Below, one piece after another: positions 7,069 to 60,935 of a DNA stretch of 64,000 bases (position 1 is its first letter; each line of letters opens with the position of its first letter). Source of the DNA: Nocardia brasiliensis (GTDB taxonomy: Bacteria; Actinomycetota; Actinomycetes; Mycobacteriales; Mycobacteriaceae); NCBI RefSeq assembly GCF_011801125.1, contig NZ_CP046171.1, positions 5,518,001 to 5,582,000 on the forward strand, read 5' to 3'. Below the pieces are notes generated by a model, which was not told where the DNA came from, did not search any database, and saw nothing but the letters and a program-made list of their open reading frames with translations. Made by a program: the position numbers and the translations under genes.

Positions 7069-8070
7069 TCACTCCAGCGCGGCCAGCAGTGTGGCGACGA
7101 GCTCATCGGCGGTACCGAACGCGGTGTATCCGGCGGCGAAGCGATGGCCGCCACCGCCGAGTCCGCTCGCGATCTCGGCAACGTCCACCCCGTCCTGCGC
7201 GCCCGGACTGCTGTCGCGGGAACGCAGCGACACCGTCCACCGATCGGCGACGGTGCGAGACTGCTTGAATACCGCGGCGATTCCCGCTTCGGCGGTGGTG
7301 CGGACGATGTCGATGACGCTTTCGGCCTCTTCGGAACTGACCTCGGCGATGTCGTCGCGCCGCACGAAGGCGTACACCAGCCCGATTCCGCCGCGGGCCT
7401 GCGGCACCAGCACGGTGGTGGCCAGCACCTTCGAGAGCATGGTCAGCCAGCCGAAAGGGTGGGTGTCCAACAGGGTTCGGGCGATCTCGCCGCCATCGAT
7501 GCCGGTGGCGAGCAGCCGCTCGGCGAGCACGTGCGTCCCGGGACGCACCCAGCGAAACGATCCGGTGTCGGTCACCAATCCGGCGTAAAGACAGTGCGCC
7601 ACTTCGGAATCGATCGGGATGCCCCAGGTGTCGAGCACCCGCGCGATCAGGCTGGTGGTCGATTCGGCACCGGGATCGATCACATTGATCGTGCCGAACC
7701 TGGTATTGGAGCGATGATGGTCGAGCACCAGAACCGTTGCGGCCCCGGCCATTCGGTCGGCGAGCGCACCGAGACGCCCGGCGCTGCCGCAGTCGACCGC
7801 GATCAGCAGATCGACCTCGGCGGGCACCTCGGCCGGCGGCACCAGATGCTGAACACCCGGCAGCGAACGCATCGACTCCGGCAGTTCGGCGGGCTCGGCG
7901 AACGACACCCGCACCGGGATCCCGCGCCGGTGCAACACCAGCGCCAGCGCGAGACCACTGCCGACGGTGTCGGCATCCGGTTGCACATGACAGACGACGG
8001 TGACCGAGCGGGCGGCTTTCATCGCCTCGACAGCCGGTTCGAGGTCGACTGCTTCCCGCATCGTCGTCAT
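7069..8070 (-). CDS. nrnA: DHH-family phosphoesterase, nanoRNase/pAp phosphatase
   Basis: A 333-residue bifunctional oligoribonuclease and 3'-phosphoadenosine-5'-phosphate phosphatase. It degrades 2-5 nt RNA fragments and clears pAp in the cytoplasm, and probably also handles cyclic-dinucleotide breakdown products. Visible motifs: VCHVQPDADTVGSG (metal-binding DxD), VDCGS, the DHH signature VLDHHRSN, and the C-terminal DHHA1 glycine-rich GLGGGGHRFAAG. It lies 13 bases downstream of rbfA in the conserved infB operon. The IS110 element now sits just beyond its 3' end, separating it from dinF. Confidence 0.9.
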   Translation of the reverse strand: MTTMREAVDLEPAVEAMKAARSVTVVCHVQPDADTVGSGLALALVLHRRGIPVRVSFAEPAELPESMRSLPGVQHLVPPAEVPAEVDLLIAVDCGSAGRLGALADRMAGAATVLVLDHHRSNTRFGTINVIDPGAESTTSLIARVLDTWGIPIDSEVAHCLYAGLVTDTGSFRWVRPGTHVLAERLLATGIDGGEIARTLLDTHPFGWLTMLSKVLATTVLVPQARGGIGLVYAFVRRDDIAEVSSEEAESVIDIVRTTAEAGIAAVFKQSRTVADRWTVSLRSRDSSPGAQDGVDVAEIASGLGGGGHRFAAGYTAFGTADELVATLLAALE

Positions 8071-8083
8071 CGCCTACCGCATG

Positions 8084-8524
8084 TCACTCGTCGTCGCGTT
8101 CGACCTTGTAGGGGTCGGCGTCACCGGCGTGCCTGGCCGTGGCCGCGACCTTGGCCACCGCCTCGTCCGCCGCCCGTGCCTTGGCCAGCAGCGCTTCCAT
8201 GTCCGCCGCGACCTCGGGCACCTTGTCCAGGACGAAAGCCAGCGTCGGCGTGAACTTCACGCCGGTGCCCGCGCCGACCTTCGAGCGCAGCACGCCCTTG
8301 GCCTTCTCCAGGCCCTGCGCCGCACCCTCGTAGTCCGGTTCGGCGTCCAAGGTTTCACCGAGCACGGTGTAGTACACCGTCGCCTCGCGCAGATCGCCGG
8401 TGACCTTGGCGTCGGTGATGGTCACGAAACCCAACCGCGGATCTTTGATCTCGTATTCGATCGCGGTCGCCACGATCGAGGAAATCCGCTTCGCGAGTCG
8501 GCGTGCCCTGGCTTGATCCACCAT
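8084..8524 (-). CDS. rbfA: 30S ribosome-binding factor A
   Basis: RbfA (146 residues, single KH-like domain) binds the 30S subunit during late maturation of 16S rRNA. Family features: start [47 protein letters not shown], then a C-terminal [21 protein letters not shown] helix. ATG 8524 is chosen because an AGGAGG site lies seven bases upstream; the longer in-frame start at 8545 would swallow this site. It sits between the DUF503 gene and nrnA, the standard order. Confidence 0.92.
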
Positions 8525-8578
8525 GGCTGAACCCTCCTCTTTCACTGGTGACCGGAGTAAACGGGCCTCCAGCCACGG

Positions 8579-8869
8579 TCAATCTTCGGGTCCGAAGATC
8601 CTGCGGCGCACTGCCAGCAACTGTAACTCCGGACGTGCCGCGACGTGCCGCTCGCAACGATCGAGTACCTCGGTCAGATGATCCATACCGGAACTGACGA
8701 AGGCGACCCCGAGCAGCGAGCGACGATGGCGGTCATGCTCCCCACCCTCGGCGGCACTCACCCCGAAACGCTGCAACTCGGCCAGGATCGGCCGGATCAC
8801 CGAGCGCTTCTCCTTCAGTGAATGCACATCGCCGAGGAGGAGGTCGAACTCCAGTGCACCCAGGTACAC
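8579..8869 (-). CDS. DUF503 (YlxP-like) protein
   Basis: A 96-residue protein of the DUF503 family, seen between infB and rbfA in many Gram-positive bacteria. Signature: an opening beta strand (YLGALEFDLLLGDVHSLKEKRSV) and the SLLGVAFVSS strand. Its function is not established; it is probably linked to ribosome assembly or translation by context. GTG 8869 follows a GAGGTGGATGG ribosome site. A strong hairpin lies between infB and this gene. Confidence 0.8.
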   Translation of the reverse strand: MYLGALEFDLLLGDVHSLKEKRSVIRPILAELQRFGVSAAEGGEHDRHRRSLLGVAFVSSGMDHLTEVLDRCERHVAARPELQLLAVRRRIFGPED

Positions 8870-8901
8870 CCATCCACCTCACATCGGTCTGGAACAAGGC
8901 C

Positions 8902-8936
8902 GGACCGTGCGCCACGCCGGGCGTGGCGCACGGTCC
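8902..8936 (-). terminator. 16-bp hairpin between infB and DUF503
   Basis: Perfect inverted repeat 8902-8917 / 8921-8936 with a 3-base loop, five bases after the infB stop on the minus strand. No long U-tract follows, so it may attenuate, process or only partly terminate the infB transcript before the DUF503-rbfA-nrnA part of the operon. Confidence 0.7.
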
Positions 8937-8941
8937 AGAGC

Positions 8942-11941
8942 TCAGTCGCGCGGCTTCTCGCGCAGCTCGTAGGCCTCGACGATGTCGCCTTCCTTGATGT
9001 CGTTGTAGGTCAACGTCAAACCGCATTCGAAGCCCTCGCGGACCTCGGTGACGTCGTCCTTTTCCCGCTTCAAGGAGGAGATCGTGACGGTCTCGGCGAT
9101 CACCACGTTGTCCCGGAGCAGGCGCGCCTTGGCGTTGCGCTTGACCGAACCCGAGGTGACCATGCAACCGGCGATGTTGCCGACCTTCGACGAACGGAAG
9201 ATCGCGCGGATCTCCGCCCGGCCCAGCTCGACCTCTTCGTAGATCGGCTTGAGCATGCCCTTGAGGGCCTTCTCGATCTCGTCGATGGCCTGGTAGATCA
9301 CCGAGTAGTACCGGATGTCCACGCCTTCGCGGTTGGCCAGCTCGGTCGCCTTGCCCTCGGCCCGGACGTTGAACCCGATGATGATCGCGTTCGAGGCCGA
9401 GGCCAGGTTGACGTTGGTCTCGGTGACGCCACCGACACCACGGTCGATGACCCGCAGCCGCACCTCGTCGTCGATCTGGATCCCGAGCAGCGCCTCTTCG
9501 AGGGCCTCGACGGTACCGGAGTTGTCGCCCTTGAGGATCAGGTTGAGCTCCGAGGTCTCCTTCAGCGCGGCATCCAGATCTTCCAGGCTGATCCGCTTGC
9601 GGCTGCGCGCGGCCAGTGCGTTGCGCTTGCGCGCGTTGCGCCGGTCGGCGATCTGGCGCGCGATCCGGTCCTCGTCGACCACGAGCAGGTTGTCACCGGC
9701 GCCCGGCACCGACGTGAAGCCGATGACCTGGACCGGCCGCGACGGCAACGCCTCGGTGACGTCGTCGCCGTGCTCGTCGACCATGCGCCGGACGCGACCG
9801 TAGGCGTCGCCCGCCACGATCGAATCGCCGACGCGCAGCGTGCCGCGCTGGATCAGCACGGTCGCCACCGGGCCGCGGCCACGGTCGAGGTGCGCCTCGA
9901 TGGCGACACCCTGCGCGTCCATGTCCGGGTTGGCCCGCAGGTCCAGCGCCGCGTCCGCGGTGAGCAGGACCGCCTCGAGCAGCTGGTCGATATTGGTGCC
10001 CTGGCGCGCCGAGATGTTGACGAACATGGTGTCGCCACCGTATTCCTCGGCCACCAGGTTGTATTCGGTCAGCTGCTGACGAACCTTGTCCGGGTTCGCG
10101 CCTTCCTTGTCGATCTTGTTGACCGCCACCACGATCGGCACGTCGGCCGCCTGCGCGTGGTTGATCGCCTCCACCGTCTGCGGCATGACGCCGTCGTCGG
10201 CGGCGACCACCAGGATCGCGATGTCGGTGGCCTTCGCACCACGGGCACGCATGGCGGTGAACGCCTCGTGACCCGGGGTGTCGATGAAGGTGATGAGCCG
10301 GTCCTGCTCGCCGAGGTGGGTGAGCACCTGGTAGGCGCCGATGTGCTGGGTGATGCCACCGGCCTCGCCCTCACGGACGTTGGCCTTGCGGATCGTGTCC
10401 AGCAGTCGGGTCTTACCGTGGTCGACGTGACCCATCACGGTCACGACCGGCGGACGCTGCTCGAGGTCCTCTTCGCCGCCCTCGTCCTCGCCGTAGGTCA
10501 GGTCGAACGATTCCAGCAGCTCGCGGTCCTCGTCCTCGGGACTGACCACGTGCACGACGTAGTTCATCTCGCTGCCGAGCAGCTCGAGCGTCTCGTCGTT
10601 CACCGACTGGGTCGCGGTGACCATCTCGCCGAGGTTGAACAACGCCTGCACCAGAGCGGCCGGGTTCGCGTCGATCTTCTCCGCGAAGTCCGACAGCGAG
10701 GCGCCACGGGCGAGCCGGATGATCTCGCCGTTGCCGCGCGGCAGCCGCACGCCGCCGACGGCGGGCGCCTGCATGCTCTCGTACTCGGCGCGTTTCGCCC
10801 GCTTCGACTTGCGGCCACGACGCGGGGCGCCACCGGGACGACCGAACGCGCCCGCGGCACCGCCACGACCGCCGGGACCACCCGGACGACCGCCACCGCC
10901 ACCGGGACGACCACGGAAACCACCCGCGGCGCCACCGGCACCGGGCGCACCGGCGCCCGCACCGCCGCCACCGGGCGCACCGCCGCGGTAGCCACCGCCA
11001 CCGCCGCCGGGACGACCGGCGCCGCCGCCGGGACCGCCACCGGGACGACCCGGACGACCGGCACCCGGGCCGCCCGCACCACCCGGACGTGCCGCACGCG
11101 ACGGCATGGCGCCGGGGTTGGGCCGCGGCGGCATCGAGCCGGGGCTCGGCCGCGGGCCACCCGGACGGGGACCGCCCTGGCCGGGAGCCGGACGCGCGCC
11201 GCCACCCTGAGCGGGTGCGCCGGGACGCGGGGCGCCCTGGGCCGGGCCGGGACGCGGACCGCCCTGAGCCGGGCCCGGACGCGGACCGCCCTGGCCCGGA
11301 GCCGGACGCGGCGCGGGACGCTCAGGCGCGGAAGAATACGGATTGTTGCCGACCCGAGGCGTTTTCGGGCCGGGACGCGGACCGGAACCACCGGGACGCG
11401 GGGCACCCGGGGTGGGTGCGCCGGGACGCTGCTGCTGACCCGGACGCGCGGCGTTCGGGGTCGGGCGCGGGCCGGCCGGCGCCGCGCTGGTCTCGGCGGC
11501 GGCCGAGGCGGCCGGTGCCGCAGGCGCGGATTCGCGGGCCGCGGCGGGCTTCGGCGCGGGCACCGGGCCGGGACGGGCGGCGGGGCCCGGCTTCACGGCC
11601 GGTCCCTCGGTACGCGCCGGGCTCGCTTCACGGACGGTTTCCTGAGCGGCCTGGGCGGGCGCGGGGGCCGCGGGGCGCGGGCCCGGGCGGGGACCGTTTC
11701 CTGCGGGCTTCGCGGCCGGACGGGCCGAGGAGGACGGGCCGGGGCGTGAACCCGACTTGGTGCCGTTCGACGGGGCTGATTTCGATGCGAACGACTCACG
11801 CAGCCTGCGCGCGACGGGAGCTTCCACCGTTGACGACGCGGACTTCACGAACTCGCCCTGCTCCTTGAGCGTTGCGAGTAGTTCCTTGCTGGTGACACCG
11901 AGTTCTTTGGCCAACTCGTGCACGCGGGCCTTGCCTGCCAC
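8942..11941 (-). CDS. infB: translation initiation factor IF-2
   Basis: A 999-residue GTPase that delivers fMet-tRNA to the 30S subunit. The IF2 N-terminal domain comes first ([21 protein letters not shown]). It is followed by a very long Pro/Arg/Gly/Ala low-complexity region (about residues 60-380), then the G domain with GHVDHGKT at about residue 504 and NKIDK, and the C-terminal domains II-IV. GTG 11941 is taken as the start because it aligns with the mycobacterial N-terminus and has an AGGAGA site just upstream. GTG 11953 is the other option. The gene belongs to the nusA-ylxR-infB operon. Confidence 0.95.
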
Positions 11942-47397: not shown

Positions 47398-47790
47398 CTA
47401 GGCCAGTAATCGCATCCCGGCCTGCTCGCCCGCGTTGTGGTCGAAGGTGACGGTGAGATCGCAGCCCGCCTCCTGGCCCAGCTGCTGGATGAGCGCGTCG
47501 GCGAAGTCGGCGCCGTCGGCGGCCCGGCGCAGCGCCTGGCGCACGGTGTCGGCGCGTTCGATGACGATCTCGGTCGAGTCGAGCAGGCCGAGCAGCACGT
47601 CGGTGACCGCCTCGGGATCCTGCTTGTAGCCGCGGCGCAGCACCCAGTGGATCTCGGCGAGCACGATCATCGTCACGTAGCCGGGCCGGGACTCGCTGAG
47701 CCCGTCGATCACCTGGTTGGCCCGCGCGGACTGCTCCGGGTCGTCCTGGGTGAGGTAGCGGATCAGCACGTTGGCGTCCAGACCGATCAT
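47398..47790 (-). CDS. vapC: VapC-family PIN-domain toxin
   Basis: A 130-residue PIN-domain ribonuclease, the toxin of a VapBC type II toxin-antitoxin pair. The acidic active-site residues are present: D5 (GLDANVLIRYL), E46 (VLAEIHWVL), D95/D98 (DGADFADAL) and D117 (TFDHN). It overlaps the antitoxin stop by ATGA (47787-47790), the usual coupling. The RNA target is not predictable. Confidence 0.88.
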   Translation of the reverse strand: MIGLDANVLIRYLTQDDPEQSARANQVIDGLSESRPGYVTMIVLAEIHWVLRRGYKQDPEAVTDVLLGLLDSTEIVIERADTVRQALRRAADGADFADALIQQLGQEAGCDLTVTFDHNAGEQAGMRLLA

Positions 47791-48074
47791 TTCTGCTTGC
47801 CTTCCACGATGTTGCCCGTGATGGCCTCGTTCATCTGCACGAGCCCGATCGGCGAGCCGGACCAGCCGACGATGCCCTTGAGCGACTTGATGGTGCGGGT
47901 TTCGGGCACCAGCTCGTAGGTGCCGTTCGCGGTCGGCACGAAGGCGACCCGGACCCCGGCCCGCAGCCCCATCGCGACCCGGACGTCGATCGGGATGGTG
48001 ATCTGCCCTTTGCTGGTCACGGTCGCGGATACCACGTTGCCCGACCTACCGCTCGGTCTCTTGTCTGCTGCCAT
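47787..48074 (-). CDS. vapB: AbrB-type VapB antitoxin
   Basis: A 95-residue antitoxin with an N-terminal swapped-hairpin AbrB/MazE DNA-binding domain (SATVTSKGQITIPIDVRVAMGLRAGVRVAFVPTANGTYELVP). Its C-terminal tail (about residues 60-95) should block VapC. ATG 48074 is used; 48083 is an alternative. The promoter and operator probably lie in 48084-48174, where an inverted repeat occurs. Confidence 0.85.
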   Translation of the reverse strand: MAADKRPSGRSGNVVSATVTSKGQITIPIDVRVAMGLRAGVRVAFVPTANGTYELVPETRTIKSLKGIVGWSGSPIGLVQMNEAITGNIVEGKQK

Positions 48075-51321: not shown

Positions 51322-51712
51322 CACCGTCTCCCACTGTCCTGGTCCGGGCTGGTCAAGGGTACCGGACTCCTGGTTAACCGGTTTTGCGAACACCTGCGCC
51401 ACAGGCAGGCCACGCCATTCTGAGCGCACCGTCGGAATCGACGAATACCGCGATCATGACGCCCATACGAGCGCGACCGCCATGCCACCGACGAGTCTCG
51501 ACGCAGACGACGGAAATTTCCCCGGATCGAGCGGCCGATCGACGACCAGACGGCGTGGCTCAAAGCCGAGTGGTATCGACGGCGTTCCGATCGAGGCGGC
51601 TGGGCCCGCGGTTGCGGGTGGCGGGCAGGGAGTGCTGTGCGGAATACCTGCGGACCGTGGTCCGTTTACGGTGGTGGTTGACATCGACACTATCCAGGAA
51701 AGAGGCTCGACC

Positions 51713-52723
51713 GTGGAATTGGGACTCACGACGTTCGCGGAGCTGTACCCCGTCGGCGACCGCCCCGCGCCGAGTGCCGCGCAGCGGCTGCGCCAGGTGG
51801 TGGACGAGGCGGTGGCCACCGAGCGCGCCGGGCTCGACGTGTACGGCGTCGGCGAACACCATCGCAAGGATTTCGCGGCGTCCGCGCCCGCGGTCGTGCT
51901 GGCGGCGATCGCGGCCCGCACCGAACGGATCCAGTTGACCAGCGCGGTCACCGTGCTGAGCTCCGACGATCCGGTGCGGGTGTTCCAGGACTTCTCGACG
52001 CTGGACGGGTTGTCCAACGGACGCGCCGAGCTGATGGCCGGGCGCGGGTCCTTCACCGAGAGCTTTCCGCTGTTCGGGTACGACCTGAGCGACTACGACG
52101 AACTCTTCGAGGAGAAGCTGGCGCTGCTGCTACATCTGCGCGAGGAGGGCCCGGTGAACTGGAACGGCAAGTTCCGCGCGCCGCTGCGCGACGCGATCGC
52201 CTACCCGCGCACCGAGAATCGCCCGCTGCCGGTATGGATCGCGGTGGGCGGCAGCACGGAGTCGGTGGTGCGCGCCGGACTGCTCGGATTGCCGCTGGCG
52301 ATCGCGATCATCGGCGGCCAGCCCGCCCGGTTCAAGCCGCTGGTCGATCTGTATCACCGCGCACTCGCCGAGGGCGGTCATGAGCGGCAGCCGGTCGCGG
52401 TGCACGCGCACGGCTACATCGCCGACACCGACGAGCAGGCGGTGGCCGACTTCTTCGAGCCCTACGCGGTGGCAATGAGCACCATCGGTCGCGAACGCGG
52501 CTGGGGCCCGATGACCCGTCCCCAGTTCGAGGCGTTGCGCTCGAAAGACGGTTCACTGTTCGTCGGCACGCCCGACTACGTGGCCGAGAAAGTCGCCGAT
52601 ATCCGCGACACCCTCGGCCTGGATCGATTCATGCTGCACACCAGCGTCGGCACGCTGCCGCACGAAAAGGTCCTGCGCAATATCGAATTGCTCGGCGAGA
52701 AGGTCGCACCCCAGGTCCGCTGA
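51713..52723 (+). CDS. LLM-class flavin-dependent oxidoreductase
   Basis: A 336-residue luciferase-like monooxygenase family protein (FMN or F420 cofactor). Pattern: LGLTTFAELYPVGD, DVYGVGEHHRKDFAASAPAVVLAAIAARTERIQLTSAVTVLSSDDPVRVFQDFSTLDGLSNGRAELMAGRGSF. The GEHH and GRGSFTESFPLFGYDL sequences are typical. Substrate unknown. GTG 51713 follows AGGAAAGAGG; an upstream frame to 51122 has no similarity. A terminator follows the stop. Confidence 0.88.
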   Translation: MELGLTTFAELYPVGDRPAPSAAQRLRQVVDEAVATERAGLDVYGVGEHHRKDFAASAPAVVLAAIAARTERIQLTSAVTVLSSDDPVRVFQDFSTLDGLSNGRAELMAGRGSFTESFPLFGYDLSDYDELFEEKLALLLHLREEGPVNWNGKFRAPLRDAIAYPRTENRPLPVWIAVGGSTESVVRAGLLGLPLAIAIIGGQPARFKPLVDLYHRALAEGGHERQPVAVHAHGYIADTDEQAVADFFEPYAVAMSTIGRERGWGPMTRPQFEALRSKDGSLFVGTPDYVAEKVADIRDTLGLDRFMLHTSVGTLPHEKVLRNIELLGEKVAPQVR

Positions 52724-52736
52724 GCCACACCCGATC

Positions 52737-52761
52737 ACCGAGCCCGAGTTAAGGGCTCGGT
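52737..52761 (+). terminator. terminator after the LLM oxidoreductase
   Basis: 9-bp stem (52737-52745 with 52753-52761) and a 7-base loop, 13 bases after the stop. The rest of 52762-52932 is less GC-rich and holds no ORF; it is the likely promoter of the PrnB-like gene. Confidence 0.7.
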
Positions 52762-52932
52762 GAATCTGGTTAAGCGGCAACGATTTAATTTACCCACAAT
52801 TTGCCAGAACCATGATTGACATAACCGCCGGACGTTTGTTTGCCTTACAGCACCCGAACATCCGACCGTACGACTGAGACGGCACACACAGGATCCGCCG
52901 AGTTCGCCGCGCGCGGATCGAGATAGGATCCG

Positions 52933-54060
52933 ATGCCGAGCTCACAACTACGGTCCCGGCCGATGACCAGCATGGACCATCCCCTCGCACTGGATATCGA
53001 CGAATTGTCGTGCCGAAAGGTGGCACGCCGTGATCCGCTCTCCGCCGACGCCGTGCTGGCGAATGTACCGAGCATGAACGCGAACGCCGATGTGCGCGGG
53101 CTCGCGACCGCTTTCCGAGAATTGCTGTGCCGTGCGAGAGAAGTCGAGTTGCCCGATATCGCCGACCGATTGGCGGCCATGCGCGATGTCGGCATGCTCA
53201 TGTCGTCTTTGCGCAGACACGGTGTCGAGCCGCTCGACCCGGTGCCGGAAGCCGCGGGCGTGCTCCTCGCGTGGGGCCATTCCGCCGGCATGGTGCCGCG
53301 AGACACGGTGCTGCACTACGGCGTCTGGAATCCCCGGGGTAGACGCCAGCGGATGTTCCTCGGCGAGCACGAGGAGAACGTCGTGCTCGACGCCGTGCGC
53401 GTGAGTACCTTGCTGATCAGCGAGATCACGCCGACGCTGGCCGGCTTGGCCGAGCTCCGGCCCGACGACACGGCGTTCGGCGAACTGCTGCACGCGGCAG
53501 CCGACCAGCTGGAGACCTTGCCGCAGTTGATGAGCGGCCTCTACCGCACGGTCGATCCGCTCGAGTTCTATGCCGCGCGATTGCGTCCGTTCATGGCCGA
53601 CGTGGTGGTGGCCGACCGGTCGTACTACGGCCCGGCGGCCGTGCACGTGCCGCTCTATCTCATCGACCGGCTCGTCTGGTCGTCCGATCACGGCGGTGTC
53701 GGCATGACCTATTTCCAGGACGATCTACTGAACTATGGACTCCCCCGCTGGCGGCGAATGTTCGACCACACCACCGACACACCCTCGCTGGTGACCCGGC
53801 TCGTCCAGGAATTCGATCGCCCCGACGGCCCGCCCTCCACCAAGGCGGCCTACGCGATGGACGGCATCATCCGAATCCTGGACGGACTGGTCGCCTTTCG
53901 CACCCGACACGGCATGCTCACCAGAGCCGCGTACACCGACGGCGCACGCTACGGCATGGGCATCGCCGGGGTCAGCCCCGCCGTCCTCGACCATGTTCTC
54001 GCCCTCACCCGGCGCTGCGCGGACTGGGCCCGCACCCGCCGCAAGGGCGCACGCAGCTGA
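52933..54060 (+). CDS. PrnB-like (monodechloroaminopyrrolnitrin synthase-type) heme enzyme
   Basis: A 375-residue protein of the PrnB family (DUF1864), relatives of tryptophan and indoleamine dioxygenases. In Pseudomonas, PrnB rearranges 7-chlorotryptophan during pyrrolnitrin synthesis. Close matches to remembered PrnB segments: DPLSADAVLANVPSMNANADVRGL, MRDVGMLMSSLRRHGVEP, PRDTVLHYGVWNPRG, SYYGPAAVHVPLYLIDRLVWSS. The heme-ligand histidine (PrnB H313) corresponds to H326 and Y321 to Y334; the PrnB S332 position is A345. There is no prnA, prnC or prnD here. It stands alone, convergent with the GntR gene, after a terminator. Start 52933 or 52963 is uncertain. Confidence 0.8.
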   Translation: MPSSQLRSRPMTSMDHPLALDIDELSCRKVARRDPLSADAVLANVPSMNANADVRGLATAFRELLCRAREVELPDIADRLAAMRDVGMLMSSLRRHGVEPLDPVPEAAGVLLAWGHSAGMVPRDTVLHYGVWNPRGRRQRMFLGEHEENVVLDAVRVSTLLISEITPTLAGLAELRPDDTAFGELLHAAADQLETLPQLMSGLYRTVDPLEFYAARLRPFMADVVVADRSYYGPAAVHVPLYLIDRLVWSSDHGGVGMTYFQDDLLNYGLPRWRRMFDHTTDTPSLVTRLVQEFDRPDGPPSTKAAYAMDGIIRILDGLVAFRTRHGMLTRAAYTDGARYGMGIAGVSPAVLDHVLALTRRCADWARTRRKGARS

Positions 54061-54086
54061 TCTTCGAAACCAACTACCGCACAGCA

Positions 54087-54863
54087 CTATTCGCCGAGAT
54101 GCGCCTCGAAGGCGATACGGTCGCCGCGGTAGAGGGCGCGGACGCGTTCGATGGGAGTGCCATCGGTGTCGACACTACGGCGGTGCAGGAGCAGCAGGGG
54201 CAGGGCCGTGGTGCATTCGAGGAGGGCGGCCTCGCGCGGGGAGGCGAGGACCGTCTCGATGCGTTCGGTGGCGCGGCCGAACACGACGCCGGTGGCGCGG
54301 ATGGCCGCGTACAGGGAGGTGGTCGGGTCGTAATGGGTGCGCAGATCGGCGAAGCGGTGCCACGGCAGAAAGGTGCTCTCCAAGCCGATGCGTTCGCCGT
54401 CGGCGAGCAGCACGCGTTCCAGGTGCATGACCGAAGTGCCAACGGGCACACCGAGATCGCGGGACACATCGGCATCGGCGGGCACGTCGTCCCAGCCGAC
54501 GAGCAACCGGCCCGGCACGCGCCCGTAGCTGATCGCGCCCTCGGTATAGGAGCGCAGCGACAGCGGCTGCACCATTTTCGGCCGCGAGACGACCGTGCCG
54601 CGCCCCTGCCGACGAATCCGCCCCTCCACCAGCAGATCTCGCAGCGCCTGCCGCACCGTCTCGCGCGCCACCCCGAAACGAACGGCGAGATCCCGTTCCG
54701 AGGGCACCGAGTCGCCCTCGTGCGACTCCGCGAGGATCGCCTCGATCTCGGTGCGCACCCGGTAGGACTTCGGGAGCCGGTCCGGCAGCGCGATCTCCGC
54801 GCGCTCACCCCCTGCCGCACCGTCCGCCGCGGTACCGACCCTGCCCACCTCCGTCGCGTCCAT
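54087..54863 (-). CDS. GntR/UTRA regulator of the phosphonate cluster (PhnF-like)
   Basis: A 258-residue GntR-family HutC/UTRA regulator: winged helix at about 30-100 (PKSYRVRTEIEAIL, SVPSERDLAVRFGVARETVRQALRDLLVEGRIRRQGRGTVVS), then the effector-binding UTRA domain (VMHLERVLLADGERIGLESTFLPWHRF). PhnF, which represses phosphate/phosphonate genes in mycobacteria, is of this type. It is divergent from the FAD oxidase gene and faces two TTGGTCTANACCAA operators at 54881-54944, so it likely controls both itself and the catabolic cluster. Confidence 0.88.
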   Translation of the reverse strand: MDATEVGRVGTAADGAAGGERAEIALPDRLPKSYRVRTEIEAILAESHEGDSVPSERDLAVRFGVARETVRQALRDLLVEGRIRRQGRGTVVSRPKMVQPLSLRSYTEGAISYGRVPGRLLVGWDDVPADADVSRDLGVPVGTSVMHLERVLLADGERIGLESTFLPWHRFADLRTHYDPTTSLYAAIRATGVVFGRATERIETVLASPREAALLECTTALPLLLLHRRSVDTDGTPIERVRALYRGDRIAFEAHLGE

Positions 54864-54880
54864 GGCCGACAGCGTACCCG

Positions 54881-54900
54881 CAATTGGTCTATACCAATTG
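54881..54900. promoter_or_regulatory. GntR-type operator 1
   Basis: CAATTGGTCTATACCAATTG is a 20-base inverted repeat: 8-base arms around CTAT. It starts 18 bases from the GntR start codon. The core TGGTCTATACCA closely resembles the remembered PhnF site TGGTATAGACCA. Confidence 0.75.
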
Positions 54901-54930
54901 TTAACCTGCCGTTCGCGCTGGTAATACCCG

Positions 54931-54944
54931 TTGGTCTAGACCAA
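54931..54944. promoter_or_regulatory. GntR-type operator 2
   Basis: TTGGTCTAGACCAA is a perfect palindrome, 17 bases before the FAD-oxidoreductase ATG at 54962 and 30 bases from operator 1. Two sites in the divergent region suit repression of both directions. Confidence 0.78.
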
Positions 54945-54961
54945 TGTGCACCATGGTTTCC

Positions 54962-56089
54962 ATGCGATTGGTCATCATCGGCGGTGGGATCCTCGGCACC
55001 GCGCACGCCCTAGCCGCAGTGCGCCGCGGTCACGAGGTCGTGCAGCTGGAGCGGGAGACCGAGGCGCGCGGTGCCACGGTCCGCAACTTCGGCCTGGTCT
55101 GGGTGTCCGGCAGGACCGCGGGCGAACTCGAGCTGACCCTGCGTTCGCGGCAGCTGTGGGAGGAGATCGGCGGCAAGATCCCCGGCGTCGGCTTCCGCCC
55201 CGCCGGGTCGATCACGCTGGTGCGCACCGCCGCCGAGCTGGCGGTCGCCGAGCAGGCCGCCGCGGGCCCGTCGGCAGCGGCCCGCGGCTTCGCGCTGCTC
55301 GAACCCGCCGAGGTGCGCGCGATCAACCCCGCACTGCGCGGGAAATTCCTTGCCGGACTGCACTGTTCGACCGACGCCTCGGTCGAGTCGCGACAGGCCA
55401 TGCCCGCCATCCGCGCCTACCTCACGGCGAGCGGCCGCTACACCTTCCACGCCGGCACCGAGGCCAGGACGGTCGGCGACACCGGCGCGGGCGCCACCGT
55501 GCGCGACGATCAGGGCCGCCGCTACGACGCGGACCTGGTGCTGGTCTGCCCCGGCGCCGCGCACACCGGCCTGACCCGCGAGCTCGCCGGAGCGCTGCCG
55601 GTGCGCCGGGTCCGGTTGCAGATGATGCAGACCGCGCCGCTCGGCGAGCCGCTCACCACCGCGATCGCCGACGGCGACAGCTTCCGCTACTACCCCGGCT
55701 TCGCGGGCGCGGCGGTGGACACGCTGAATCGCGAACAGTCCCAAGCGGCTACCGCCGCCGAACACAAGATGCAGTTGCTCTGTGTGCAGCGCCTGCACGG
55801 TGGCCTGACCATCGGCGACACCCACGAATACGACGAGCCGTTCGCCTTCGACGTCGACGAGGCGCCCTACGAACACCTCACCGCGGTCACCGAGGAACTG
55901 CTCGGATGCGCACTGCCGCAGGTGATTCGGCGCTGGGCGGGCGTCTACAGCCAGAGCGTCGACCCCACCGCGCTCGTCACCCGCGCCGCGGCCGGAGCAC
56001 ATACCTGGGTCGTCACCGGGCCGGGCGGGCGCGGCATGACCCTCGGACCCGCACTCGGCGAGCAAACCGCCGATCTCCTGAACCTGTGA
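54962..56089 (+). CDS. FAD-dependent oxidoreductase of phosphonate clusters (TIGR03364 type)
   Basis: A 375-residue D-amino-acid-oxidase-fold flavoprotein. It starts MRLVIIGGGILGTAHALAAVRRGHEVVQLE (FAD site) and shows RNFGLVWVSGR, YYPGFAGAAVDT and VTGPGGRGMTLGPALGEQ. This matches the HpnW-type oxidases that are syntenic with phosphonatase-like hydrolases and phosphonate transporters. It probably oxidatively deaminates an (N-alkyl) aminoethylphosphonate, giving phosphonoacetaldehyde; this is inference. ATG 54962 lies after the operator; ATG 54953 is an alternative. The stop overlaps or abuts the next gene. Confidence 0.82.
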   Translation: MRLVIIGGGILGTAHALAAVRRGHEVVQLERETEARGATVRNFGLVWVSGRTAGELELTLRSRQLWEEIGGKIPGVGFRPAGSITLVRTAAELAVAEQAAAGPSAAARGFALLEPAEVRAINPALRGKFLAGLHCSTDASVESRQAMPAIRAYLTASGRYTFHAGTEARTVGDTGAGATVRDDQGRRYDADLVLVCPGAAHTGLTRELAGALPVRRVRLQMMQTAPLGEPLTTAIADGDSFRYYPGFAGAAVDTLNREQSQAATAAEHKMQLLCVQRLHGGLTIGDTHEYDEPFAFDVDEAPYEHLTAVTEELLGCALPQVIRRWAGVYSQSVDPTALVTRAAAGAHTWVVTGPGGRGMTLGPALGEQTADLLNL

Positions 56090-56097
56090 GGATTGCC

Positions 56098-56787
56098 TTG
56101 TCGGAGAACACCATTCAGCTCGCCGTACTGGACATGGCCGGTACCACCGTGGCCGACGGCGGCCTGGTGCTGCGCGCCTTCGATGCCGCGGCCACTGCCG
56201 CGGGACTGGCGCCAGAAGGACCCGAGCGAGCGGCGGCCCGCGCCTACGTGCTCGACACCATGGGTCAGTCGAAGATCGCCGTGTTCCGCGCGCTGCTCGG
56301 CGACGAGGCACGCGCACAACAGGCGAACCACGCGTTCGAGACCGCGTACGAGGCGCTGATCGATGAGGTCGAGATCGCCCCGATTCCCGGTGCCGCCAAG
56401 GCGATCGATGAGCTGCGTGGCGCGGGCGTCAAGGTCGCGCTCACCACCGGCTTCAGCCGCTCGACCCAGGATCGTCTGCTGCACGCGCTCGGCTGGCACG
56501 ACCTCGCCGACCTGACGCTGGCCCCGGCCGACGCCGGACGGGGACGCCCCTACCCAGACCTGGTGCTCACCGCGCTGCTGCGGTTGCGGGCCGACGCGGT
56601 GGATCGCGTTGCCGTGCTCGGCGATACGACCAGCGACATCGCCACCGGCCGGGCCGCGGGCGCACGGATCGTCGCAGGAACGCTCACCGGCGCCCACGAC
56701 GAGACGCGACTGCGCGCGGCGGGCGCCACCCACGTGGTGGCCTCGGTCGTCGAATTCGCCGAACTGATCCTGACCGAGCAGCGCTGA
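56098..56787 (+). CDS. phosphonatase-like HAD hydrolase (TIGR03351 type)
   Basis: A 229-residue haloacid-dehalogenase-family hydrolase resembling phosphonoacetaldehyde hydrolase. Motif I LDMAGTT (D12), a cap-domain lysine in DTMGQSK (K59) like the Schiff-base lysine of PhnX, motif II TTGFS, and motif IV VLGDTTSDIATG. It would cleave the C-P bond of phosphonoacetaldehyde to acetaldehyde and phosphate. TTG 56098 has GAGG six bases upstream; GTG 56086 overlapping the previous stop is the other start. Confidence 0.82.
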   Translation: MSENTIQLAVLDMAGTTVADGGLVLRAFDAAATAAGLAPEGPERAAARAYVLDTMGQSKIAVFRALLGDEARAQQANHAFETAYEALIDEVEIAPIPGAAKAIDELRGAGVKVALTTGFSRSTQDRLLHALGWHDLADLTLAPADAGRGRPYPDLVLTALLRLRADAVDRVAVLGDTTSDIATGRAAGARIVAGTLTGAHDETRLRAAGATHVVASVVEFAELILTEQR

Positions 56788-56851
56788 CCCGCGGCACGGC
56801 ACCGCCCACGACCGACCCGCAGACACCCACCGAACCGAAAGTTGTAGTCAC

Positions 56852-57925
56852 GTGCGCACTTCCCCGCCGCGGCCCCGCCCGGCGCGCCGCCTGTCCCGTG
56901 CCGCGCTGCTCGTCGCCGCCGTCCTCACCGTCGCGGTCACCGCGGCCTGCGGTGGCACCGGCACGCGGAGCGCGAACGGCACGACCGTCACGGTCTACTC
57001 CGCCGACGGCGTAGGCAGCTGGTATCAGAACCGGTTCGCCGAGTTCGAGAAGCAGACCGGCATCGCGGTCAACCTGGTGCAGGCCGGCTCGGGCGAGGTC
57101 GTCAACCGGGTCGACAAGGAGCAGTCCAACCCGCAGGCCGACCTGCTCGTCACGCTGCCGCCGTTCATCCAGAAGGCGAAAACCGCAGGGCTGCTTCAGA
57201 ACAGCGGCGTGGACACCGGCGCCGTCCCGGCCGCCGACAAGGATCCCGATGGCGAGTACGTCACGCTGGCCAACAACTATCTGTGCTTCATCGCCAACCC
57301 CTCGGTCGATGCGAAGGCGCTCACCTGGGACGCGCTGTTACGGCCGGAATTCAAAGGCAAACTCCAGTATTCGACGCCGGGCCAGGCCGGCGACGGCACC
57401 GCCGTGCTGATCCTGCTGCAGCAGTTGCTCGGCAAGCAGCGCGCGCTCGACTACCTGGCCTCGCTGCAGGCCAACAATGTCGGGCCGTCCTCGTCGACCG
57501 GCAAACTGCAGGCCAAGGTCGACAAGGGCGAGCTCAGCATCGCCAACGGCGACGTGCAGATGAACCTGACCACGATCAAGGAGAAGGGCTCGAAGTTCAG
57601 CGTGTTCTTCCCCGCCACGGCCGACGGCAAGCGATCGACCGTCGCGGTGCCGTACGTGATGGGCCTGGCCAAGGGCGCACCGCACGCGGCCGAGGCGAAG
57701 CGGCTGATGGAGTTCTTGCTCTCGGCACCGGCCCAGCGGGCGCTCGGCGCGGACGCTTTCGCGGTGCCCGCGCGCGCCGAGCTGCGTGATGCCGCTGACA
57801 CCGGCTCGGGTCCGTCGCCGAGTTCGGTGCTGCGGGGCGTCGAAGTGCTGCCGATCGACTGGAACAAGGTGCTCAGCGAGCTGGACGGCGACTTGGCCGC
57901 GTATCAGAAGGCCACCGGTAGCTGA
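56852..57925 (+). CDS. ABC transporter substrate-binding lipoprotein (phosphonate type)
   Basis: A 357-residue extracellular binding protein with a lipobox ending at C33 (VAVTAACGG). The mature domain begins TVTVYSADGVGSWYQNRFAEFEKQTGIAVNLVQAGSGEVVNRV, as in the iron/aminoethylphosphonate (PhnS-like) binding family, and shows YSTPGQAGDGTAV and NVGPSSSTGKLQ. It is followed by the ATPase and two permeases in order, all in one operon. GTG 56852 is the start, with only a weak ribosome site. Confidence 0.85.
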   Translation: MRTSPPRPRPARRLSRAALLVAAVLTVAVTAACGGTGTRSANGTTVTVYSADGVGSWYQNRFAEFEKQTGIAVNLVQAGSGEVVNRVDKEQSNPQADLLVTLPPFIQKAKTAGLLQNSGVDTGAVPAADKDPDGEYVTLANNYLCFIANPSVDAKALTWDALLRPEFKGKLQYSTPGQAGDGTAVLILLQQLLGKQRALDYLASLQANNVGPSSSTGKLQAKVDKGELSIANGDVQMNLTTIKEKGSKFSVFFPATADGKRSTVAVPYVMGLAKGAPHAAEAKRLMEFLLSAPAQRALGADAFAVPARAELRDAADTGSGPSPSSVLRGVEVLPIDWNKVLSELDGDLAAYQKATGS

Positions 57926-57953
57926 AAAGCCCTAGCGCACAAAGGAGTCGACC

Positions 57954-59129
57954 ATGTCCGCCGGTGACGCGCAGACCAAGACATCCACCTCCGCCCCGCC
58001 AGGGACAGCAACCGACGCCGCACCCGCGATCGTGTTCGACCGGGTCGGCGTCAGCTATCGCAGCGGCCGCACCACGACCGTCGCGCTGGCCGATTTCACA
58101 CTGCGCGTGGCCGCGGGCGAAACCGTCGCCCTACTCGGCCCCAGCGGGTCGGGCAAGTCGACCGCGCTCAAGGTCCTTGCGGGTTTCGTCCGGCCGACCT
58201 CGGGCGCGGTCCGGCTGGCGGGGCGCGAGGTCACCACGCTCGCACCGGCCAAGCGCGGGATCGGCGTCGTGGTGCAGTCGTACGCGCTGTTCCCGCACAT
58301 GAGCGTGCGCGGCAATGTGGCCTTCGGCTTGAAGGCACAGCGCGTGCCGCGCACCGAGATCGGTGCACGCGTCATCGAGGCACTGGACATGGTGGGGATG
58401 GGCGCCTACGCCGAGCGACTGCCCAGGGAGCTGTCCGGCGGCCAGCAGCAGCGGGTGGCGATCGCCAGGGCACTGGCCATCCGGCCCAAGGTGTTGCTGC
58501 TCGACGAGCCGCTCGCCGCGCTCGACGCGCAACTGCGCCAGTCCATGCTCGCCGAACTCCAGCAGTTGCGGGCCGCGCTGCCGAACACGGCCATGCTGTA
58601 TGTAACCCACGACCAGTCCGAGGCACTCGCGCTGGCCGACCGCATCGCCGTCATGCGCGAGGCCCGCCTGGTCGACATCGACACCGCCGAAAACCTCTGG
58701 CGCCGACCGCCCTCGGAGTTCACCGCTGCGTTCCTCGGTGGCGCGAACCTGCTGTCCGCCACGGTGCACCGGGTGTCCGGCGGCGCGGCACTGGTCACGG
58801 TCGGCACCAGGACGCTGCGTGCGCAAGCGCCGACACCCGGTGTCGGCAGGCAAGGTTGGGCGCCGGACTCCCCCGCGCTGCTGTGCGTGCGCCCGCACAC
58901 CATCCGGATCGGCGCCACCTCCGAGCGGGATGCGCTGCGCGCCACGGTGAGCGCCACAGTATGGCGCGGTGCTTCGACCCGCTTGACGCTCGCCGTCGAC
59001 GGGCTGGCCGACGACGTCGTCGCCGATGTCCCCGGCCACGCCGAGCCGCCCGTCGGCGCGGTCGTCGGGGTCTGTTTCCCTGATCCCGCCGGTGTCCTGA
59101 TCCCGCACGCGGTGGGAGCCGACGCATGA
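57954..59129 (+). CDS. ABC transporter ATP-binding protein (phosphonate type)
   Basis: A 391-residue ATPase (PhnT-like): Walker A GPSGSGKST, signature LSGGQQQRVAIARAL, Walker B KVLLLDEPLAALDA, H-loop YVTHDQSEALALADRIAVM. The C-terminal ~110 residues form a TOBE-type regulatory domain. ATG 57954 follows AAGGAGTCGACC. It energises uptake through the two downstream permeases. Confidence 0.9.
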   Translation: MSAGDAQTKTSTSAPPGTATDAAPAIVFDRVGVSYRSGRTTTVALADFTLRVAAGETVALLGPSGSGKSTALKVLAGFVRPTSGAVRLAGREVTTLAPAKRGIGVVVQSYALFPHMSVRGNVAFGLKAQRVPRTEIGARVIEALDMVGMGAYAERLPRELSGGQQQRVAIARALAIRPKVLLLDEPLAALDAQLRQSMLAELQQLRAALPNTAMLYVTHDQSEALALADRIAVMREARLVDIDTAENLWRRPPSEFTAAFLGGANLLSATVHRVSGGAALVTVGTRTLRAQAPTPGVGRQGWAPDSPALLCVRPHTIRIGATSERDALRATVSATVWRGASTRLTLAVDGLADDVVADVPGHAEPPVGAVVGVCFPDPAGVLIPHAVGADA

Positions 59130-59235
59130 CCCGACGTCGTTGCCGCACCGGTCACGCTGTCTCACAACCTTTCCCACGGATCAGGGCAGGGTCGGGAGCG
59201 AAGCTCGGTGGCAGGTTCGCAATGGGAGGCCACGC

Positions 59236-60135
59236 GTGAGCGCGCCCGCCCTGCGCGAACCGATCGCCGAGGCGAGCCAGGAAAGACCCGCGCGACAACG
59301 CGACTGGAAACCGATGCTCTGGAGCCTGCCGCCGACCCTGGTGGTGCTGTGCGTCGCCGGGTACCCGATCATCCGGGTACTGGCCGAGTCCACCGTGACA
59401 CCCACCGGCCGGGGCACCGCGGTGTGGTCGGACGTGCTCGGCTCCGATTCGTTCCGTAACGCGTTGTGGCGCACGGTGTCCATCGCCGCCATGTCGACCG
59501 TCGGATGTCTGATCCTCGGCACGTTCCTGGCCGTCGTGCTCGCCTTCGTGCCCTTCCCCGGCGCGCAGGTGGTGGGCAGGCTCATCGATACGGTGCTGAC
59601 GCTGCCGTCGTTCCTGATCACCCTGGCGTTCACGTTCCTCTACGGCACCGCGGGCGCGGTGAACGCGCTGATCACCGAACTCACCGGCGCGAGAGCGCCC
59701 GCGGTGGACTTCCTCACCACGCCGCTCGGGGTGATCCTCGCCGAGATCACATTTTTCACGCCTTTCGTAGTGCGGCCGCTGCTGGCCGCGTTCGCGCAGG
59801 TGCCGCGCGAACAACTCGATGTCGCGGCGAGCCTGGGCGCTTCGCCGTGGCGCGTGCTACGCCAGGTGGTGCTGCCCGAGGCATGGCCTGCGCTGGCGGC
59901 GGGCGGCAGCCTGGTATTGCTGTTGACGCTCAACGAGTTCGGCATCGTGTTGTTCACCGGGGCGAAGGGTGTGCTGACGCTGCCCGCGCTGATCTACACC
60001 CGCGGCATCGTCACCTTCGATCTGCCCGGTGCCGCGGTCCTCGCCTGCGTGCAGGTGGCGCTCTCGCTCACGCTGTATCTCACTTACCGGTTGTTGTTCG
60101 CCCGGCTCACCGGCGCGCCGCGGCAGGAGGGCTGA
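59236..60135 (+). CDS. ABC transporter permease 1 (phosphonate type)
   Basis: A 299-residue six-helix permease (PhnU-like, binding-protein-dependent type). The EAA loop is DVAASLGASPWRVLRQVVLPEAWPALAAG. GTG 59236 follows GGGAGG at 59224-59229; the longer frame to 59140 lacks family sequence. It is separated from the ATPase by 106 bases. Confidence 0.87.
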   Translation: MSAPALREPIAEASQERPARQRDWKPMLWSLPPTLVVLCVAGYPIIRVLAESTVTPTGRGTAVWSDVLGSDSFRNALWRTVSIAAMSTVGCLILGTFLAVVLAFVPFPGAQVVGRLIDTVLTLPSFLITLAFTFLYGTAGAVNALITELTGARAPAVDFLTTPLGVILAEITFFTPFVVRPLLAAFAQVPREQLDVAASLGASPWRVLRQVVLPEAWPALAAGGSLVLLLTLNEFGIVLFTGAKGVLTLPALIYTRGIVTFDLPGAAVLACVQVALSLTLYLTYRLLFARLTGAPRQEG

Positions 60136-60137
60136 CC

Positions 60138-60935
60138 ATGCTGGTCTGGACGAGAAGCGGCAAGGCGATCCTGCTCGCGGCGTTCGCGCTCGTGGTGTGC
60201 GTGGTGTTCCTCGCCCCGATCGCCACCGTCGTGGCGGCCGCGCTGGCGGGCAGCTGGACCGGCCCGCTGCCCTCGAACCTCGGCTTCGCCAATTTCGGCA
60301 GGGCGCTGTCCGGCGAGCAGGCGGCTTCCCTCTCGGTGAGCCTGCAGACCGCGCTGCTGGCCGGCGCCGTCTCGCTGGTGCTCGGCACCTGGGCGGCCCT
60401 GGCGGTGCGCGAGGCGCCGGGTTGGTGGCGGCGCGGCACCGACGCGGTGTTCCACCTGCCGGTCGCGGTGCCCTCGGTCGCCATCGGCCTCGGCGTGCTG
60501 ATCGCGTTCAACGAGCGGCCCGTGCTGCTCGGTGGCACGAAATGGATTGTCATCCTTGCCCATTCGGTGCTCGTGCTGGCCTACGCGTACAGCGCAGTAG
60601 CGGCCGCGCTGAACCGGATCGACCCCGGCTACCGGCAGGCCGCCGAGTCGCTGGGGGCCGGACCGGCCCGGGTGCTGTTCCAGGTGACGCTGCCGCTGCT
60701 GCTGCCCGCCCTCGGCGCGGCCGCGGGCCTGGCCGTCGCGCTGTCGATGGGCGAGCTGGGCGCCACCGTCATGGTTTACCCGGCCACCTGGAAGACACTG
60801 CCGGTCAGCATCTTCGCCCAGACCGATCGCGGCGAGGTCTTCGACGCCGCGGCGAGCACCACCCTGCTGGTGCTGGTCACTCTGGTGGCGTTGGTCCTGC
60901 TCGGACGGATCCGCGGCCGCGCCGCCGTGCGCTGA
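60138..60935 (+). CDS. ABC transporter permease 2 (phosphonate type)
   Basis: A 265-residue six-helix permease (PhnV-like). The EAA loop is QAAESLGAGPARVLFQVTLPLLLPALGAAAG. ATG 60138 lies three bases after the previous stop and has an AGGAGGGC site. It completes the transporter; the cluster ends here, about 90 bases before an unrelated membrane gene. Confidence 0.88.
   Translation: MLVWTRSGKAILLAAFALVVCVVFLAPIATVVAAALAGSWTGPLPSNLGFANFGRALSGEQAASLSVSLQTALLAGAVSLVLGTWAALAVREAPGWWRRGTDAVFHLPVAVPSVAIGLGVLIAFNERPVLLGGTKWIVILAHSVLVLAYAYSAVAAALNRIDPGYRQAAESLGAGPARVLFQVTLPLLLPALGAAAGLAVALSMGELGATVMVYPATWKTLPVSIFAQTDRGEVFDAAASTTLLVLVTLVALVLLGRIRGRAAVR

What the first reader, a model, noticed from the sequence alone, without database searches (positions are those of the whole stretch)
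52933..54060. Orphan PrnB homologue with a changed active-site residue
The protein matches long segments of the pyrrolnitrin enzyme PrnB and keeps the heme-ligand histidine (H326) and the active-site tyrosine (Y334) eight residues later. The position of PrnB Ser332 is alanine (A345). None of prnA, prnC or prnD is nearby, and it is flanked by a terminator and a convergent regulator. It may be a stand-alone indole- or tryptophan-modifying heme enzyme with a different reaction.
Basis: partly seen in the sequence, partly recalled or inferred. Interest (0 to 1): 0.75.

Follow-up and report, generated by a model that had tools for sequence, protein, structure and literature searches.

The report
Lone PrnB-like heme enzyme, remodelled pocket
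This Nocardia gene encodes a relative of the heme enzyme that rearranges tryptophan to make the antifungal pyrrolnitrin, but it stands alone in the genome, and its small Nocardia group has changed substrate-pocket positions that the other relatives compared keep unchanged, so it probably acts on a different substrate or gives a different product.

The parts
52933..54060 (+). PrnB-family (PF08933) heme enzyme, 375 aa (heme inferred)
   Evidence: start supported by conserved GAGATAGGA 5' of the ATG
53908..53910 (+). codon of H326, proximal heme ligand by alignment (PfPrnB His313, IDO His346)
53932..53934 (+). codon of Y334 (PfPrnB Tyr321; Leu in FbPrnB)
53962..53964 (+). codon of I344 (ATC), at the position of PfPrnB Ser332 / FbPrnB Ser319; by motif IDO Thr379
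   Evidence: FbPrnB Ser319 contact in PMC11791213 section 7
53569..53571 (+). codon of Y213 (Phe in 142 of 142 other homologues; IDO Phe226)
53584..53586 (+). codon of R218 (IDO Arg231; kept here, Gly in 5 of 14 Nocardia-clade sequences)
52736..52762 (+). 10-bp hairpin between the luciferase-like gene and the PrnB gene, probably a terminator (no T run)
51671..52723 (+). luciferase-like monooxygenase (TIGR03858 family), upstream neighbour; left flank of the variable junction (start from my own gene caller)
54087..54863 (-). GntR/UTRA regulator, convergent; right flank of the variable junction; next to a 2-aminoethylphosphonate cluster

Best explanation
A stand-alone PrnB-family heme enzyme. It has the IDO/PrnB fold and a histidine-ligated heme (inferred from invariant H326), and oxidises the indole ring of a tryptophan-like substrate with O2 at ferrous heme. 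The clade to which it belongs has rebuilt the part of the pocket that holds the substrate's alpha-amino/carboxylate end: the window protein has Phe213 to Tyr and the loop Ser344 to Ile. So I expect weaker or different recognition of free L-Trp, i.e. a substrate with an altered amino-acid end (for instance a decarboxylated, esterified, amidated or peptidyl tryptophan), and/or an oxidation that stops at a mono-oxygenated or cyclised indole instead of the aminophenylpyrrole that PrnB makes. It does not make pyrrolnitrin. Shown: family, predicted fold, conserved heme ligand, remodelled positions, purifying selection, orphan location. Inferred: heme binding, indole substrate, changed recognition, product.
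For: Family and fold. Pocket: of 20 positions that are (nearly) invariant in 142 other homologues, exactly 4 are broken in the 14-sequence Nocardia clade (213, 218, 343, 344); the same test with the 13 nearest relatives held out breaks 0 of 20 in them. These four align with IDO F226, R231 and the Gly-Thr of GTGG (213 and 218; the loop by motif), which line the Trp site and hold its ammonium and carboxylate (PMC5700043 passages); FbPrnB Ser319 holds the carboxylate (PMC11791213 section 7). Functional gene: dN/dS 0.12-0.14 against four orthologues, I344 codon ATC in all five. Loop precedent: MarE has an aliphatic Leu at this place, and changing TDO's GTGGS to SLGGS gave a minor (about 5%) C3-hydroxylated tricyclic product (PMC12312684 passages). 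Orphan. The genome also has a tryptophan-dioxygenase-family gene, so this one need not serve Trp breakdown.
Against: R218, the counterpart of the carboxylate-pairing IDO Arg231, is kept in the window protein, and the loop backbone could still bind a carboxylate, as at MarE Leu232. The other Nocardia sequences change different members of the four, which also fits loosened constraint. FbPrnB's listed carboxylate contacts do not include the equivalent Arg, so IDO roles may not carry over. The loop is a weaker part of the folded model (blocks 331-350 pLDDT 67-69). In TDO the loop change still gave about 95% of the normal product, and in MarE the reverse change of the same two residues (SLGGR to GTGGR) made no significant difference.
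Confidence: 0.5

Rival explanations
1. Ordinary PrnB chemistry: the enzyme rearranges free L-Trp to 3-(2-aminophenyl)pyrrole, without chlorine, and the pocket changes are tolerated.
For: Y334, R218, heme ligand and 18 of the 20 invariant positions are kept in the window protein. PrnB accepts unchlorinated Trp (PMC11791213 section 2). A PrnB homologue occurs in Rapidithrix thailandica (P0069), from strains of which 3-(2'-aminophenyl)-pyrrole was isolated (PMC2630848, start of the abstract in the listing).
Against: The position that holds the carboxylate in FbPrnB is Ser in 142 of 142 other homologues and Ile here; Phe213 likewise 142 of 142 and Tyr here. P0069 and PfPrnB sit together on a distant branch of the tree.
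Confidence: 0.22
2. Substrate is still free L-Trp, but the loop change turns the outcome to mono-oxygenation: 2-oxindole or a C3-hydroxylated, cyclised pyrroloindoline, as in MarE and loop-changed TDO.
For: MarE SLGGR versus TDO GTGGS: aliphatic residue at the same loop place; some loop changes shift products (PMC12312684 passages; PMC11904535 passages).
Against: MarE and TDO are a different branch of the superfamily; purified PrnB has shown no activity (PMC11791213). MarE's product depends mainly on ascorbate, MarE is called primarily a dioxygenase, and its SLGGR-to-GTGGR variant was unchanged.
Confidence: 0.18
3. The pocket is decaying: a recently acquired orphan gene under relaxed constraint, or a non-catalytic heme/indole-binding protein.
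For: Different Nocardia lineages carry different residues at 218, 236, 343 and 344; patchy, 7 of 150 Nocardia genomes; no conserved partner gene in the 7 loci examined.
Against: dN/dS 0.12-0.14, under HpnW (0.147) and PhnS (0.300) beside it, though above the luciferase-like gene (0.066) and GntR (0.099); Ile344 in 7 of 7 sequences of the brasiliensis-group branch; 16 of 20 invariant positions unbroken in all 14.
Confidence: 0.1

Closest known systems
PrnB (monodechloroaminopyrrolnitrin synthase), Pseudomonas fluorescens, and its Flavobacteriales homologue (PDB 2v7i, 9dfg)
   Different: Ser332/Ser319 is Ile, Phe201 is Tyr; no prn partners found; 27-29% identity over the fold; far apart in the tree
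PrnB-family proteins of Streptoalloteichus, Kitasatospora and relatives (P0010-P0022)
   Same: 42-51% identity, nearest relatives outside Nocardia; joined with the Nocardia clade at 100/97, their own unity weakly supported at 80/61
   Different: Keep all 20 invariant positions; in 11 of 11 loci stand tail to tail with a SAM methyltransferase gene that 7 of 7 Nocardia loci lack
IDO1 / TDO
   Different: 12-14% identity to IDO; GTGG loop is GIAG here; no PF03301 match in this protein
MarE (2-oxindole-forming, maremycin)
   Same: Aliphatic residue at the second place of the active-site loop (SLGGR versus GIAG)
   Different: TDO-like family, different loop ends; resemblance is at one position and may be convergent
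PdnC (Paenibacillus paenidepsin cluster) and PyrK1 (Streptomyces rugosporus)
   Same: PrnB homologues outside pyrrolnitrin clusters
   Different: PdnC lies in a biosynthetic cluster and its predicted indole hydroxylation is untested there; PyrK1's pyrroindomycin cluster is recalled; PyrK1 keeps the Ser

Membership tests
PrnB family (PF08933) | Match to the profile over its cut-off | tested here: met
   105.9 bits, cut-off 27
PrnB family (PF08933) | IDO/PrnB fold | tested here: met
PrnB family (PF08933) | Proximal heme-ligand histidine | tested here: met
   H326; His in 142 of 142 other homologues
PrnB family (PF08933) | Loop serine that holds the substrate carboxylate (FbPrnB Ser319) | tested here: not met
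   Ile344; Ser in 142 of 142 others. A conserved feature, not the definition of the family
PrnB family (PF08933) | Heme binding in the purified protein | not testable with these tools
   No experiment; inferred from conservation
Pyrrolnitrin synthase PrnB (function) | Turns 7-Cl-Trp or Trp into the aminophenylpyrrole | not testable with these tools
   No experiment
Pyrrolnitrin pathway | prnA/prnC halogenases and prnD Rieske enzyme clustered with prnB | tested here: not met
   Best PF04820 match in the genome 1.6e-6 (10 of 61 candidates scored), against E below 1e-130 for the full-length matches elsewhere in the genus; no Rieske match inside the window, 7 elsewhere in the genome
IDO/TDO | GTGG loop motif | tested here: not met
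   GIAG
IDO/TDO | Dioxygenation of Trp to N-formylkynurenine | not testable with these tools
   No experiment
MarE-type mono-oxygenase | Member of the TDO sequence family (PF03301; that MarE belongs to it is recalled) | tested here: not met
   Only PF08933 matches at E 0.001

The most novel reading that the evidence does not exclude
A natural PrnB-clade heme enzyme that has given up recognition of free tryptophan and, without any partner gene, oxidises a carboxylate-free or carboxylate-masked indole by a reaction not known for the superfamily.
Probability: 0.3. Interest if true: 0.72.

Novelty: new variant of a known kind. Interest (0 to 1): 0.5.

Why it matters
How PrnB works is open: activity in vitro has been seen only with fresh crude Pseudomonas extract, and the isolated enzyme gave none (PMC11791213). 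A natural clade that keeps the heme site but rewrites four otherwise invariant pocket positions gives a ready comparison set: the residues point to the part of the substrate that has changed, and a homologue without neighbouring partner genes may be easier to reconstitute. It also warns that 'monodechloroaminopyrrolnitrin synthase' is probably the wrong product name for these Nocardia genes.

Tried and rejected
Ala345 as the changed active-site residue: rejected by alignment.

Pyrrolnitrin or another halogenated arylpyrrole pathway in this genome: no full-length tryptophan halogenase found; none either in the other six Nocardia genomes with this clade's gene (best E 2.6e-9 to 7.7e-8; that call scored only the 10 best first-look candidates per genome, and under the same cap it found the full-length halogenase of G124).

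Operon with the luciferase-like gene: hairpin between them, and that gene does not appear beside the PrnB gene in L037 and L038, where a GH5 glycosidase is a shared neighbour (85.8% identical).

Hidden methyltransferase partner: the methyltransferase of the nearest relatives has no close match in the genome, only weak domain matches, best 1.7e-7.

Promoter and terminator consensus scans found 0 and 0, against shuffle means of 0.3 and 0.7. The gap of about 800 bases in G116 shows no PrnB match at 1e-6; a looser comparison gave a best E of 0.015.

Rows dropped from counts: L013-L016 (remote PF08933 branch), P0027 (mis-framed tail), P0066 (truncated), L007 and L012 (duplicates of P0006 and P0003); of the 160 rows aligned, one search used 142 + 14. 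These homologues come from two searches seeded on the window protein and on A1 (each scored 7,997 candidates; the second listed 120 of 125 hits) and from genomes, so they are not an even sample of the family. Alignment A1 held the window protein and 67 of the 70 proteins (P0027, P0058, P0066 left out). The first locus extraction ignored strand and was redone; the script only wrote a file.

Literature: searches listed no paper on the Nocardia proteins (openly licensed PubMed Central papers only); three key PrnB/HDAO papers were not held.

Full report
What is there. The window lies in a 7.95-Mb single-contig genome whose genes at this place match Nocardia brasiliensis and N. vulneris at 79-100% protein identity. 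The ORF at 52933-54060 encodes 375 aa. It matches PF08933 (PrnB) with 105.9 bits (cut-off 27), no NCBIfam model at E 0.001, and PfPrnB and FbPrnB in the PDB at E 3.3e-43 and 1.5e-36. It is the only PF08933 match of the genome.

The changed residue. Pairwise and multiple alignments put it at I344 (GIAG against PfPrnB GSGG and FbPrnB GSAG). A345 corresponds to Gly333/Ala320 and is unremarkable. In FbPrnB this serine (Ser319) stabilises the substrate carboxylate together with Gly210, Gly211 and a heme propionate (PMC11791213, section 7 read). The same loop place is Thr379 in IDO and Thr342 in hTDO and Leu in MarE (passages); the match of loops is by motif, as the profile alignment to IDO ends before the loop.

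A clade-wide remodelling. I aligned 160 rows and, after dropping duplicates, a mis-framed and a truncated protein, compared 142 homologues with 14 distinct sequences of the Nocardia clade. Twenty positions are invariant or have one exception in the 142 (two of them with some gaps). The Nocardia clade breaks four: F213 to Tyr (14 of 14), R218 to Gly (5 of 14), G343 to Ala (3 of 14), S344 to Ile, Thr or Met (7, 5 and 1 of 14; Ser in 1). The other 16, heme ligand included, are intact in all 14 where a residue is present (position 34 is a gap in 4). With the 13 nearest relatives (P0010-P0022) held out, the same test gives 0 of 20 broken in them. By profile alignment 213 and 218 are IDO Phe226 and Arg231; in IDO these residues and the GTGG motif line the tryptophan site and hold its ammonium and carboxylate (PMC5700043 passages). 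Position 236 (FbPrnB Gly210, IDO Ala264), Ala or Gly in all 144 other rows, is Pro in 9 of 16 Nocardia rows, duplicates included. The window protein itself has Tyr213 and Ile344 and keeps R218, G343 and A236. The link to the substrate wall was made after seeing the positions, so I give no p value; the held-out relatives are the control. Several of the 14 Nocardia sequences are close kin, so they are not 14 independent events.

Is it a working gene? dN/dS against four orthologues is 0.12-0.14; four neighbouring genes, against one of those genomes, give 0.066, 0.099, 0.147 and 0.300. The I344 codon is ATC in all five genomes compared.

Relatives. In a 94-row tree the nine Nocardia rows are one clade (100/100), joined with the Streptoalloteichus/Kitasatospora rows (100/97), whose own unity is weakly supported (80/61); PfPrnB and the Rapidithrix homologue P0069 are far away. 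9 of 150 genomes of the genus have a PF08933 match; seven have this clade's gene (64-100% identity: G000, G029, G030, G031, G040, G080, G143) and two (G124 39%, G146 26%) have other branches.

Context. In the window and four brasiliensis-group loci (L002, L003, L004, L039) the gene lies between a luciferase-like monooxygenase and a convergent GntR/UTRA regulator beside a 2-aminoethylphosphonate cluster; in L039 a further 5.3 kb separates it from the regulator. In G023 the two flanking genes are under 20 bases apart with nothing between, and in G116 an unrelated stretch of about 800 bases lies there. Among 40 relatives, 12 fetched loci hold a close GntR-HpnW pair; 2 of these show the PrnB gene beside it (G000, G143); the loci reach only about 1.5 kb past the regulator and one is shorter still. 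In L037 and L038 (N. colli and N. ninae by 100% identity to P0006 and P0003) the gene has other neighbours, among them a GH5 glycosidase. So it behaves as a single-gene occupant of variable sites, gained or lost on its own. No full-length tryptophan halogenase was found in the genome (best PF04820 E 1.6e-6, 10 of 61 candidates scored), no Rieske match in the window, and a tryptophan-dioxygenase-family gene lies elsewhere.

Contrast. In the 10 loci fetched at length for the nearest relatives (L078-L087) and in the remaining close one (L069), 11 of 11, the PrnB gene stands tail to tail with a SAM methyltransferase gene, also found in L090 (39% identity), against 0 of 7 Nocardia-clade loci. In G124 the PrnB homologue is flanked by a tryptophan halogenase (515 bits) and an FAD monooxygenase, which shows what a PrnB locus looks like when partners are present.

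Mechanism. PrnB binds Trp with the amine on the iron, and its carboxylate is held by the loop serine, two glycines and a propionate; tryptamine, which lacks the carboxylate, binds 100-fold more weakly (PMC11791213). Replacing that serine by Ile should weaken this grip. In TDO, changing GTGGS to SLGGS lowered dioxygenation and gave a minor C3-hydroxylated, cyclised product (about 5%); the reverse change of these two residues in MarE had no significant effect (PMC12312684 passages). I therefore expect an indole oxidase whose substrate end, and perhaps product, differs from PrnB's. The alternative that free Trp is still rearranged to an aminophenylpyrrole is open.

Verdict. New variant of a known kind; chemistry untested.

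Noticed in passing
L078-L087 and L069 (for example L082:9325-11203): In 11 of 11 loci of the Streptoalloteichus/Kitasatospora relatives the PrnB-family gene is convergent with, and in some overlaps, a SAM methyltransferase gene; also L090. A conserved two-gene module of unknown product.
   Followed up: partly
L035 (G124), 7239-11241: PrnB homologue between a full-length tryptophan halogenase and an FAD monooxygenase in a Nocardia: candidate halogenated arylpyrrole cluster.
   Followed up: partly
window 52724-54086; L107, L104, L039: The junction between the luciferase-like and GntR genes is a variable site: empty, another stretch, PrnB gene, or PrnB gene plus 5.3 kb.
   Followed up: partly
L013-L016: A remote PF08933 branch scores 264-329 bits on the Pfam model, far above the window protein (105.9), on a branch of 4.5 changes per column; the Pfam family mixes two groups.
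   Followed up: no
L088, L089, L091: Another PrnB-family branch sits with an FAD monooxygenase, an MFS transporter, an HpaB-type hydroxylase and an AraC regulator (families on L088; the others by clustering).
   Followed up: no
window 54087-60935: GntR regulator, TIGR03364 (HpnW) FAD oxidoreductase, HAD hydrolase, 2-aminoethylphosphonate-binding protein and ABC transporter genes: a probable phosphonate-use cluster.
   Followed up: no
window 47398-48035: PIN-domain gene with a small gene 5' of it that matches MazE just under its cut-off (23.3 of 24.7 bits): probable toxin-antitoxin pair.
   Followed up: no
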